In this document: positions 12,498 through 13,987 of the stretch, piece by piece | Layout: every line of letters begins with the position of its first letter | Numbering within the stretch: the first letter of the stretch is position 1 | Virus record (IMG/VR): IMGVR_UViG_3300010389_000156 | Span: 1 to 22,448 of that record | Strand: one strand, 5' to 3' | Source of the DNA: a virus | DNA length: 22,448 nt | Notes under the pieces: generated by a model | Seen by the model: the letters and a program-made list of their open reading frames with translations, nothing else | What the model was told of the DNA's origin: nothing | Database searches by the model: none | Translations under genes and position numbers: made by a program

Positions 12498-12505
12498 TAT
12501 TTATC
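12498..12505 (-). promoter_or_regulatory. Late promoter-like motif GATAAATA
   Basis: The minus strand reads GATAAATA at 12505 to 12498, 29 bases before the ATG of the giant fibre and six bases after the hairpin terminator of the small-gene cassette. This places a late transcription start exactly where the cassette ends. One mismatch to the T4 late consensus. Confidence 0.55.
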
Positions 12506-12511
12506 TACTAA

Positions 12512-12539
12512 AAGACCCCCCAATTTCTTGGGAGGTCTT
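12512..12539 (-). terminator. Intrinsic terminator of the small-gene/tRNA cassette
   Basis: In minus-strand RNA the sequence forms a 12-bp stem, AAGACCUCCCAA paired with UUGGGGGGUCUU, closed by a GAAA loop and followed by two more U residues. One pair is a G-U wobble, which becomes a C-A mismatch on the plus strand. Together with the U run this favours function on the minus strand. It lies 41 bases after the stop of the 57-codon gene. Confidence 0.75.
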
Positions 12540-12580
12540 AAAGCACACGGAAGGGATTTGGTTCAGTATCACCTTTTATA

Positions 12581-12754
12581 TTATATCACATTTTTCTCAC
12601 TTAGCAAGTACTCTACAGTATTTGCAATATCATTCATAGCATCTCTAAGGTCTGGTCTCTGTCCTGATTCTTGTTTGCAGACAGGTCTAGAACAATCAGA
12701 TAAAGTCCACCTCCAAAGACTCATTTCTTGACAATACCATAAATTTATTTTCAT
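12581..12754 (-). CDS. Small hypothetical phage protein, 57 residues
   Basis: The frame opens with MKINLWYCQEMSLWRWTLSD and ends with PDLRDAMNDIANTVEYLLSE plus four residues. It has a Trp-rich N-terminal half, Cys residues at 8, 21 and 26, and an acidic amphipathic helix at the end. From memory, small proteins with this Trp-rich start and the LRDAMNDIANTVEYLL end occur in cyanophages, but no function is known to me. The start ATG lies 10 bases after the stop of the 89-residue gene, with a weak purine run (AAGAGA) upstream. It is the last gene before the terminator at 12539 and would be transcribed with the tRNA and the other small genes. The coherent frame and tight spacing argue that it is real. 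Confidence 0.65.
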   Translation of the reverse strand: MKINLWYCQEMSLWRWTLSDCSRPVCKQESGQRPDLRDAMNDIANTVEYLLSEKNVI

Positions 12755-12764
12755 ATTTCTCTTA

Positions 12765-13034
12765 TTAATCAGTAGGCAACATTTCTGGATTTTCTAGTTC
12801 TAGATTAAACAGCATTGGATGGCATTGTTCCTCAATTAAGTAAAAGGATGACTTGTACAGGTCATCAGTATTAAATCTTCTTTCCTTATCTGCTAGTTTA
12901 ATTATTTCAAAATCATATTGATAACTATCTGGAACATCATCAAAAGTAAAAGGAACTTGATTTATGAAATACATAAGAACAATTTCAGTTCCTTGATTAT
13001 ACCAAACATACTTGGTATCAATACGGTATTTCAT
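12765..13034 (-). CDS. Hypothetical protein, 89 residues
   Basis: The product begins MKYRIDTKYVWYNQGTEIVL and continues through an aromatic, acidic sequence to NLELENPEMLPTD. I do not recognise a family. It has no signal peptide or clear membrane segment and looks like a small soluble alpha/beta protein. A longer frame could begin at a TTG at 13076, but that codon lies two bases from the 3' end of the tRNA and would have to be read from the processed end. The ATG at 13034 with CGGAA upstream is preferred. It sits between the tRNA-Leu and the 57-residue gene in the sigma70-type cassette, so early expression is inferred. Such proteins in T4-like phages often modify host functions, but nothing here shows that directly. 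Confidence 0.6.
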   Translation of the reverse strand: MKYRIDTKYVWYNQGTEIVLMYFINQVPFTFDDVPDSYQYDFEIIKLADKERRFNTDDLYKSSFYLIEEQCHPMLFNLELENPEMLPTD

Positions 13035-13077
13035 AGTGGTTCCGTACTTTTGGTTATTTAGAGTACAATACTCCAAG

Positions 13078-13160
13078 TAGGACGAAAGGGACTTGAACCC
13101 TTAAGGGCAATGCCCGACAGATTTTAAGTCTGTTGTGTATACCAATTCCACCACCGTCCC
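13078..13160 (-). tRNA. trnL: tRNA-Leu (anticodon UAA)
   Basis: The minus strand folds as a class II tRNA. The acceptor 5' strand GGGACGG (13160 to 13154) pairs with UCGUCCU, with G-U at the first and last pairs. The anticodon stem ACAGA/UCUGU holds the loop CUUAAAA, so the anticodon is UAA. A long variable arm (GGGC with GCCC around AUU) is typical of tRNA-Leu. The T arm AAGGG/CCCUU has the loop UUCAAGU. The discriminator is A and CCA is not encoded. It reads UUA leucine codons, which suit an AT-rich phage. It lies 8 bases after the stop of the 59-residue gene and 43 bases before the next ATG, so it must be cut out of a shared transcript. Confidence 0.93.
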
Positions 13161-13168
13161 ATAAAAAC

Positions 13169-13348
13169 TCAGAAGAAACTGAGTTGATCACTAGAGTCTA
13201 GAACATAAGTGGAAGGATTGAGACGACAGTATTCATTAAATGTAATCTTCATCTCTTTCCAAGTTAGACCACAATTTGCTGCTGCCTCAGGAACATTCCA
13301 TTTTGCTGAGAACAGCATCTCCATTGACTTCCTTGTTTCAGGTCTCAT
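13169..13348 (-). CDS. Small hypothetical phage protein, 59 residues
   Basis: The frame begins MRPETRKSMEMLFSAKWNVP and continues EAAANCGLTWKEMKITFNEY, ending in Ser-Phe-Phe. The N-terminal two thirds looks like a small helical helix-turn-helix-type fold (EAAANCGLTWKEM), as seen in short DNA-binding or regulatory proteins. That reading is only an inference from pattern. The ATG lies five bases after the stop of the 72-residue gene, suggesting coupled translation. The stop lies eight bases before the tRNA-Leu. Codon structure is coherent and no frame on the other strand competes. It belongs to the sigma70-type cassette. Confidence 0.65.
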   Translation of the reverse strand: MRPETRKSMEMLFSAKWNVPEAAANCGLTWKEMKITFNEYCRLNPSTYVLDSSDQLSFF

Positions 13349-13353
13349 ACTTA

Positions 13354-13572
13354 TCAGAATGGGTTAGCATAGTGTACAATATCTTCAGGCATCACTGCAC
13401 GAATGACCTCAAGAACATTCATGAACTGCTCTACTGTATCACAGTCCACAACCTTTTCATCACCCTCATTAGAGTATAGATAAAATACTCTCTTCAGAGG
13501 ATCAACAACACACCTTGTAATCCATTCTTCATCTTCATTATCAACAATGAAGTCTTCTCTGCTGTAACTCAT
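13354..13572 (-). CDS. Hypothetical protein, 72 residues, first gene of the cassette
   Basis: The product starts MSYSREDFIVDNEDEEWITR, is strongly acidic in its first third, and ends RAVMPEDIVHYANPF. I do not recognise the family. The frame can be extended 14 codons upstream to a TTG at 13614. That codon lies within the spacer of the sigma70-type promoter (13597 to 13625), upstream of the expected RNA start near 13590, so it cannot be used from this promoter. The ATG at 13572 is chosen instead, giving a leader of roughly 15 to 20 bases and little Shine-Dalgarno signal. It is probably expressed early together with the tRNA-Leu and three other small genes. Confidence 0.65.
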   Translation of the reverse strand: MSYSREDFIVDNEDEEWITRCVVDPLKRVFYLYSNEGDEKVVDCDTVEQFMNVLEVIRAVMPEDIVHYANPF

Positions 13573-13596
13573 TGGTGTTGTGTTGACTACCTTTTT

Positions 13597-13625
13597 ATTA
13601 TAGGGCAGAGACAAGGCAGAGTCAA
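13597..13625 (-). promoter_or_regulatory. Strong sigma70-type promoter of the small-gene/tRNA cassette
   Basis: On the minus strand TTGACT (13625 to 13620) is separated by exactly 17 bases from TATAAT (13602 to 13597). This is a perfect -10 and a five-of-six -35 at optimal spacing, one of the clearest signals in the window. It lies in the gap between the 115-residue late gene (stop at 13640) and the 72-residue gene. Host RNA polymerase with its housekeeping sigma factor would be expected to use it early in infection. Confidence 0.75.
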
Positions 13626-13639
13626 GGACAGAGTGCCAC

Positions 13640-13987
13640 TTATGAAAGTGTCAGTGTTGCAGTGCCAACACCAGCTACACTAAAAGAAAGAGTAGTTCCT
13701 GACCAAGTAATACTTACAGCAGTAGTAAGTCCAGAACTAATGAATCCATTGGCAGTTACAATGCCAACACTGAGGTTTGGTCCCCCAGAAAGACCTTGTG
13801 CAAGAGTTGCAGTTCCTGCAGTTGCTGCATAAGTAGCATTTGCAACTGTACCACTTAAAGTGGTGCCATTACCAAAAGTACTGTAGATTTCATCAAAATT
13901 GTCATTGGTCTTTGTACTGGCTACTCTCAGAGTATCACCAGTTCCGTCATTAGGACTAGAACCAACATTAAGTGTCTGCTTTGCCAT
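13640..13987 (-). CDS. Short fibre-type structural protein
   Basis: The 115-residue product starts with MAKQTLNVGSSPNDGTGDTL and continues RVASTKTNDNFDEIYSTFGN. This module of about 45 residues is found at the N-terminus of many marine phage tail fibre proteins and probably attaches them to the baseplate. The remainder is Ala/Thr/Gly-rich beta sequence (YAATAGTATLAQGLSGG, VAGVGTATLTLS) without a recognisable tip. It is short for a fibre, so it may be a minor baseplate or short-fibre subunit, or an old fibre that lost its distal part. AAGGAG lies 10 bases before the ATG, and a late-type AATAAATA motif lies 21 bases upstream, which fits a late virion gene. Confidence 0.7.
   Translation of the reverse strand: MAKQTLNVGSSPNDGTGDTLRVASTKTNDNFDEIYSTFGNGTTLSGTVANATYAATAGTATLAQGLSGGPNLSVGIVTANGFISSGLTTAVSITWSGTTLSFSVAGVGTATLTLS

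What the first reader, a model, noticed from the sequence alone, without database searches (positions are those of the whole stretch)
12512..13625. Insulated sigma70-driven cassette of four small genes and a tRNA inside the late tail region
A near-perfect promoter (TTGACT, 17 bp, TATAAT) starts the unit and an oriented hairpin terminator ends it, six bases before the late motif of the giant fibre. Late virion genes lie on both sides on the same strand. This looks like a self-contained early unit inserted among late genes. Its small unknown proteins (72, 59, 89 and 57 residues) are candidates for host-takeover factors, and one has a helix-turn-helix-like segment.
Basis: partly seen in the sequence, partly recalled or inferred. 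Interest (0 to 1): 0.6.

Follow-up and report, generated by a model that had tools for sequence, protein, structure and literature searches.

The report
Phage RNA antisense to host tRNA
Between a conserved set of small genes and the giant tail-fibre gene, this virus of marine cyanobacteria carries a short promoter-driven RNA that is a near-perfect antisense copy of one host transfer RNA, the one reading the valine codon GUG that the host uses about six to seven times more often than the virus, so it may switch off the host's translation selectively.

Summary
The reported unit is real: sigma-70-like promoter P1, four small ORFs, tRNA-Leu(UAA), terminator, late motif, giant fibre. It is not an insertion but a conserved block of T4-like cyanophages. 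P1 is kept in 42 of 45 non-redundant loci, against 2.8% of shuffles. Early timing is untested.

A second promoter (12607-12580, minus) starts a ~63-nt RNA ending at the same terminator. Its unstructured 5' part is antisense to host tRNA-Val(CAC), from the anticodon loop through the acceptor stem. The predicted net binding gain is -20 kcal/mol, against -14.4 for tRNA-Val(GAC) and -6 or weaker for the other tRNAs tried.

In 36 of 49 homologous regions chosen without regard to RNA, this tRNA is the best antisense match among 41 host tRNAs. All variants keep the loop antisense and one stem strand; none of 33 keeps both. It occurs at other sites in Syn9, S-SM1, Syn19 and others. It was found in 11 of 14 Synechococcus and 0 of 9 Prochlorococcus myoviruses (p=0.0003). 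GUG is 39 per 1000 codons in the host but 6-7 in the phages.

Best explanation: an anti-tRNA small RNA. Expression and effect are unproven.

The parts
13597..13625 (-). Promoter P1, TTGACT-17-TATAAT, start of the small-gene unit
   Evidence: conserved at this place in 42/45 non-redundant loci, shuffles 2.8%
13354..13572 (-). Small gene A72 (72 aa), phrog_662, Pfam DUF7294
13169..13348 (-). Small gene B59 (59 aa), phrog_1308/1920, T4-GC 160, very widespread in cyanomyoviruses
   Evidence: 388 phage records
13077..13160 (-). tRNA-Leu(UAA)
   Evidence: ARAGORN, Rfam 55 bits
12765..13034 (-). Small gene C89 (89 aa), phrog_4134, T4-GC 730
   Evidence: 80 phage records
12581..12754 (-). Small gene D57 (57 aa), phrog_2818
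   Evidence: 79 phage records
12580..12607 (-). Promoter P2, TTGCTA-16-TATAAT with extended -10 TG; overlaps the end of D57
   Evidence: equivalent sites score >=10 in 26/33 homologous loci vs 6% of shuffles
12510..12573 (-). Anti-tRNA small RNA (about 63 nt; predicted start near 12573)
12559..12573 (-). Antisense block 1, GGTGATACTGAACCA: pairs with the 3' acceptor strand and T-arm of host tRNA-Val(CAC)
12544..12557 (-). Antisense block 2, ATCCCTTCCGTGTG: pairs with anticodon loop, 3' anticodon-stem strand and variable region
   Evidence: 12-nt exact Watson-Crick run; Val(CAC) ranks 1 of 41 tRNAs
12510..12539 (-). Intrinsic terminator hairpin and T run, shared by the P1 and P2 transcripts
   Evidence: 6 of 10 pairs show two-sided changes in 20 homologues
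12498..12505 (-). Late-promoter motif GATAAATA of the giant fibre gene
   Evidence: NATAAATA is the cyanophage late motif (PMC2984593)
6250..12468 (-). Giant tail fibre gene (2072 aa), downstream neighbour
   Evidence: phrog_529, E=0

Best explanation
The last part of the cassette is a small RNA gene. P2 and the terminator predict a ~63-nt RNA with a mostly single-stranded 5' half antisense to the host's tRNA-Val(CAC). It first contacts the anticodon loop (UCACAC, pairing with GUGUG(A)) and then invades the stem, holding the 3' half of the tRNA from the anticodon loop to the acceptor stem in a near-continuous duplex. That would block charging and decoding, or mark the tRNA for decay. GUG is the main valine codon of Synechococcus and rare in these AT-rich phages, so host translation should suffer more than phage translation. 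The same unit supplies a phage tRNA, consistent with remodelling of the tRNA pool. Shown by sequence: promoter position, terminator, complementarity, specificity, conservation, host distribution and codon contrast. Inferred: that the RNA is made, binds the tRNA in cells and inhibits it.
For: A pattern taken from the phage RNA hits cyanobacterial genomes at the antisense strand of one gene, and ARAGORN calls that gene tRNA-Val(CAC) in 73 loci. For 8 of 8 RNA variants Val(CAC) is rank 1 of 41 WH7803 tRNAs by duplex energy; exact runs are 12-16 nt in variants A, B and C, where shuffles average 8. Net gain after unfolding both RNAs is -20.0 kcal/mol (window; Val(GAC) -14.4, next -6.0) and -16.8 (S-SM2 type B; next -6.7). 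Without RNA-based selection, Val(CAC) is top in 36 of 49 fibre-upstream regions. Of 33 with the core, 17 keep only the 5' stem strand, 16 only the 3' strand, none both. 20 type-A RNAs keep the antisense core; the terminator keeps pairing through two-sided changes. Promoters: 26/33 vs 6%. In other phages the element sits elsewhere with its own terminator and often a late motif just upstream: Syn9 between gp134 and gp135 after the capsid gene, S-SM1, S-SSM5, Syn19. Among contig hits many lie directly 3' or 5' of phage tRNA genes. Present in 11/14 Synechococcus and 0/9 Prochlorococcus myoviruses, Fisher p=0.0003. Six sampled best matches from Cyanobiaceae genomes of 0.9-1.7 Mb are tRNA-Val(GAC), not CAC. 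GUG 39/1000 codons in WH7803 vs 6.9 in S-SM2 and 5.8 in the window. No Rfam family.
Against: No expression or binding data. Variant D matches in short blocks (longest 9 nt), not significant by run length alone. S-PM2, S-RSM4 and S-ShM2 infect Synechococcus but gave no recognisable copy. tRNA-Val(UAC) may also read GUG, so loss of CAC could be tolerated. tRNAs are abundant, folded and protein-bound, so much RNA would be needed. Leu(CAG)/CUG shows a still larger host-phage difference and is not targeted. The host of the window phage is unknown; WH7803 served as proxy. Phages compared are related and were not a random sample. Type B contigs were chosen by an exact seed, so their seed identity is partly by construction.
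Confidence: 0.6

Rival explanations
1. The antisense stretch is a relic of a tRNA attachment site (or of a decayed tRNA gene on the other strand) and has no RNA function.
For: tRNA-Val(CAC) looks used as an integration site: partial 3' copies occur in bacterial contigs L341, L343, L356, L366, L374 and tRNA-identical 3' parts in some viral contigs (L092, L121, L147, L148). Type A carries the 3' half of the tRNA, as an attP would.
Against: Types B and C carry the other side or only the anticodon arm. Parts of the tRNA (T-loop, stem partners) are missing while the loop and one stem strand stay intact, 17:16 with never both. Promoter and terminator are conserved around it and the element recurs at unrelated sites. 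These are lytic T4-like phages; no integrase appeared among the window genes scanned.
Confidence: 0.12
2. The RNA protects rather than disables the tRNA: it covers the anticodon loop and shields it from a host anticodon nuclease used in defence.
For: The invariant part is exactly the antisense of the anticodon loop; anticodon nucleases are known anti-phage effectors (e.g. PMC12409363, PMC11042736, listed; established knowledge).
Against: A covered tRNA cannot decode; the phages hardly need GUG; no nuclease specific for Val(CAC) is known to me in these hosts. It does not explain pairing that extends to the acceptor stem.
Confidence: 0.1
3. It is a tRNA-sensing attenuator (T-box-like): tRNA-Val binding to the leader decides whether transcription passes the terminator into the fibre gene.
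For: A GUG-containing anticodon-pairing segment is followed by a terminator and a gene.
Against: The fibre has its own late motif after the terminator. The terminator arms vary freely and no conserved alternative pairing with the seed is seen. The downstream gene differs between phages. Pairing includes stem strands, unlike codon-anticodon reading in T-boxes.
Confidence: 0.06
4. One reading: an early operon of small host-takeover proteins; the terminal RNA is incidental.
For: P1 is conserved and strong; the small proteins are conserved families.
Against: Says nothing about P2 and the conserved antisense; no function or early timing shown; B59 has no detectable HTH family match. This view is compatible with the anti-tRNA RNA and does not exclude it.
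Confidence: 0.12

Closest known systems
Trans-acting bacterial and phage small RNAs (e.g. P22 sar, phage-derived sRNAs reviewed in PMC12197685)
   Same: Short, predicted own promoter, unstructured pairing region, intrinsic terminator.
   Different: Target is a host tRNA instead of an mRNA; pairing covers up to half of the tRNA. The review's main text contains no mention of tRNA.
CfrI, the antisense RNA of cyanophage S-PM2 (Millard 2010, cited in PMC12197685)
   Same: Antisense RNA of a T4-like cyanophage.
   Different: CfrI is linked to the phage's own psbA and about 225 nt; the RNA here would act in trans on a host tRNA. S-PM2 itself gave no copy of it.
Inactivation of host tRNA-Leu reading CUG after T2/T4 infection (Sueoka and Kano-Sueoka, 1960s; recalled, not retrieved here)
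   Same: A T-even-type phage removing a host tRNA for a G-ending codon common in the host and rarer in the phage.
   Different: There the tRNA is cut; here base pairing by an RNA is proposed.
CreT/CreA RNA toxins that starve cells of a rare tRNA (recalled, not tested)
   Same: A small RNA lowers the availability of one tRNA.
   Different: CreT works through rare codons in a mini-ORF on ribosomes, not by antisense pairing to the tRNA.
T-box leaders
   Same: RNA recognises a tRNA through its anticodon and is followed by a terminator.
   Different: No T-box domain, antiterminator or fixed downstream gene.

Membership tests
Trans-acting antisense small RNA | Own promoter | tested here: met
   P2 or equivalent in 26/33 loci vs 6% of shuffles; many contig hits instead follow or precede phage tRNA genes
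Trans-acting antisense small RNA | Intrinsic terminator | tested here: met
   two-sided changes kept in 6/10 pairs
Trans-acting antisense small RNA | Accessible pairing region complementary to one target | tested here: met
   mean unpaired probability 0.83 for the window seed (type A L023 core only 0.45); Val(CAC) rank 1 of 41 for 8/8 variants
Trans-acting antisense small RNA | Expressed and alters the target in cells | not testable with these tools
   needs infected cells
T-box riboswitch | Mutually exclusive terminator/antiterminator and T-box sequence | tested here: not met
   no Rfam T-box match; no alternative pairing in alignments A1/A2
tRNA attachment site (attP) | Contiguous identity to the tRNA 3' end | tested here: not met
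   identity broken by deletions in type A; types B and C lack the 3' end
T4-like cyanophage (Kyanoviridae) gp5-fibre locus | Conserved small-gene families and tRNA-Leu between structural genes and giant fibre | tested here: met
Host sigma-70 (early) promoter | Conserved -35/-10 with 17-18 nt spacing | tested here: met
Host sigma-70 (early) promoter | Transcription start early in infection | not testable with these tools
   no time-course data held for these genes

The most novel reading that the evidence does not exclude
T4-like cyanophages of Synechococcus carry a widespread family of 'anti-tRNA' RNAs that base-pair with the host's tRNA-Val(CAC) and take it out of use, slowing GUG-rich host translation while sparing AT-rich phage genes. 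Sigma-70, late-motif and tRNA-array contexts suggest expression at several stages, depending on the phage.
Probability: 0.5. Interest if true: 0.92.

Novelty: categorically new. Interest (0 to 1): 0.85.

Why it matters
It would be, to my knowledge, the first natural virus-encoded RNA that targets a host tRNA by antisense pairing, giving phages a protein-free, codon-selective way to redirect translation. It would also give one reason why cyanophages carry tRNA arrays: the antisense RNA often sits within or next to them, so the phage may both remove a host tRNA and add its own. The absence of Val(CAC) from sampled small Cyanobiaceae genomes and of the RNA from nine Prochlorococcus phages makes host range and tRNA content directly comparable. 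It is testable with one Northern blot, since Syn9 and S-SM1 are named isolates that carry the element.

Tried and rejected
(1) 'Early cassette inserted among late genes': rejected as an insertion because the gene order is conserved. (2) GUGUGAAGGA as partner of host sRNA Yfr1 (motif recalled): dropped, since type A does not fit and tRNA-Val explains all types. (3) Anti-Shine-Dalgarno role of CCUUCC: dropped for the same reason. (4) The P1 leader GGTAATCAA as a general early-promoter motif: in S-SM2 it follows only this promoter; its role is unexplained. (5) Known RNA family: no Rfam match at gathering score except tRNA. (7) HTH in B59: no family match. (8) Two-mismatch hits of the seed in Prochlorococcus phages, S-PM2, S-RSM4 and S-ShM2 show no terminator behind them and were judged chance. 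(9) Literature: no report of phage RNA antisense to tRNA found in the held library; the Syn9 transcriptome paper (PMC5029184) is not held.

Full report
The window (G000, a 22,448-base IMG/VR record) comes from a T4-like cyanophage, with its main genes on the minus strand. The described unit is there: P1 (TTGACT-17-TATAAT, 13625-13597), ORFs of 72, 59, 89 and 57 residues, tRNA-Leu(UAA) and a terminator a few bases before the late motif GATAAATA and the 2072-residue fibre. Each small ORF belongs to a PHROG of unknown function; relatives occur in 45 to 388 phage records, essentially all from cyanophages.

Is it an inserted early unit? I fetched 80 viral contigs through the 59-residue protein. The order A72, B59, tRNA-Leu, C89, (tRNA-Thr), D57, fibre is the conserved arrangement in most of them and also in S-SM2 and, without C89, RN05-S; other tRNAs and genes have been inserted into it. 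P1 is kept just before A72 in 42 of 45 non-redundant loci at >=10/12 (shuffles 2.8%), even where the upstream gene is unrelated. So the promoter is real by conservation, but the unit is ancestral. Nothing here measures timing, and no terminator separates P1 from the structural gene before it.

The overlooked part. Many loci have a second promoter between D57 and the fibre, followed by 45-75 nt ending at the terminator. In the window it is an extended -10 site at 12607-12580. Across 33 homologous regions a comparable promoter scores >=10 in 26 (6% in shuffles). The short RNAs share GUGUG but otherwise fall into variants: A (window: GGTGATACTGAACCAAATCCCTTCCGTGTG), B (GTGTGAAGGAAGTGCG), C (CCTTCCGTGTGAA) and D. 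Their terminator stems keep pairing through changes on both sides.

Identity of the sequence. It is the antisense strand of tRNA-Val(CAC), GGGCGATTAGCACAGTGGTAGCGCACTTCCTTCACACGGAAGGGGTCACTGGTTCGAATCCAGTATCGCCC; ARAGORN assigns it in 73 loci. Variant A is antisense to the 3' half (acceptor strand, T-arm strand, 3' anticodon stem, loop), variant B to the loop, 5' anticodon stem and D-arm side.

Specificity. Against 41 distinct tRNAs of Synechococcus WH7803, tRNA-Val(CAC) is the best partner for 8 of 8 variants; exact runs are 12-16 nt for A, B and C, where shuffles average 8, while D has only 9 nt. Counting the cost of unfolding both RNAs, the window RNA gains 20.0 kcal/mol with Val(CAC), 14.4 with Val(GAC), 6.0 or less with the others; the S-SM2 RNA gains 16.8 versus 6.7. 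A test free of RNA-based selection used 49 non-redundant regions upstream of the fibre, nearly all in loci fetched by protein: Val(CAC) was the top antisense match in 36, with runs of 9-17 nt against 7-10 for the runner-up. In the whole S-SM2 genome this site is the only antisense match of 13 nt or more to Val(CAC); the other listed matches fall in phage tRNA genes or look like chance matches elsewhere.

Signs of function. First, 33 of 33 RNAs with the core keep one strand of the anticodon stem beside the loop and none keeps both (17 versus 16). A decaying copy would not be expected to do that; an RNA that must stay open for pairing would. Second, the same core with a terminator lies at other genome sites in other phages: Syn9 (between gp134 and gp135 after the capsid gene), Syn33, S-SSM5, S-SM1, Syn19, S-RIM8, WH25-B, SynMITS9220M01, S-CAM1, and in several a late motif stands ~10 nt before it in place of a sigma-70 site. 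Third, of 159 contig hits, 59 lie next to phage tRNA genes, most often tRNA-Asn, tRNA-Thr, tRNA-Gly or tRNA-Leu. Fourth, it was found in 11 of 14 Synechococcus myoviruses and 0 of 9 Prochlorococcus myoviruses (Fisher p=0.0003). Among 201 Cyanobiaceae genomes about 110 carry a near-identical Val(CAC); in most others the best match is 89-90% identical, and six sampled from those are tRNA-Val(GAC).

Why this tRNA. GUG makes up 60% of valine codons and 39 per 1000 codons in the WH7803 genes sampled, but 8-10% and 6-7 per 1000 in the window and S-SM2. Of host tRNAs that read a single G-ending codon, only Leu(CAG) shows a larger difference. Removing Val(CAC) would therefore hit the host more than the phage. 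This is inference from codon counts in 38 host genes.

Status. Shown by sequence: promoters, terminator, antisense identity, specificity, conservation, one-strand rule, distribution. Not shown: that the RNA is made, binds the tRNA in cells, and what follows. A shield against anticodon nucleases, a T-box-like attenuator and an attachment-site relic were considered and are less likely for the reasons given. I found no earlier report in the held library, and Rfam has no such family; much literature is outside that library, including the Syn9 transcriptome paper.

Noticed in passing
window 13596-13580 and L001-L085 (after P1): P1 is followed after N4-8 by a conserved leader RGTAN, mostly GGTAATCAA (42 of 45 non-redundant loci); in S-SM2 no other 11/12-or-better promoter is followed by GGTAATCA. 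Role unknown.
   Followed up: partly
L210, L211, L213, L223, L248 and similar: Variant B of the antisense RNA also sits as a 5' leader with a hairpin before phage tRNA genes, so RNase P could release it from the tRNA precursor.
   Followed up: partly
L091, L096, L103, L139, L153 and similar: Variant A directly follows the 3' end of phage tRNA-Asn or tRNA-Thr without an evident promoter of its own, and its GGCGATACTGCC can form a small 5' hairpin.
   Followed up: partly
L341, L343, L356, L366, L374; viral contigs L121, L147, L148: Partial copies of the tRNA-Val(CAC) 3' half in bacterial and viral contigs look like attachment-site scars of integrating elements using this tRNA.
   Followed up: no
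L016, L048, L062 (variant D): A divergent RNA that replaces CCTTCC by AAAA-type sequence yet keeps the acceptor, CAGTGACCC and loop matches to tRNA-Val(CAC).
   Followed up: partly
window 13640-13987: The 115-residue protein before P1 has a T4 gp9/gp10-like N-terminal part (PF07880) on a short, otherwise unassigned protein.
   Followed up: no
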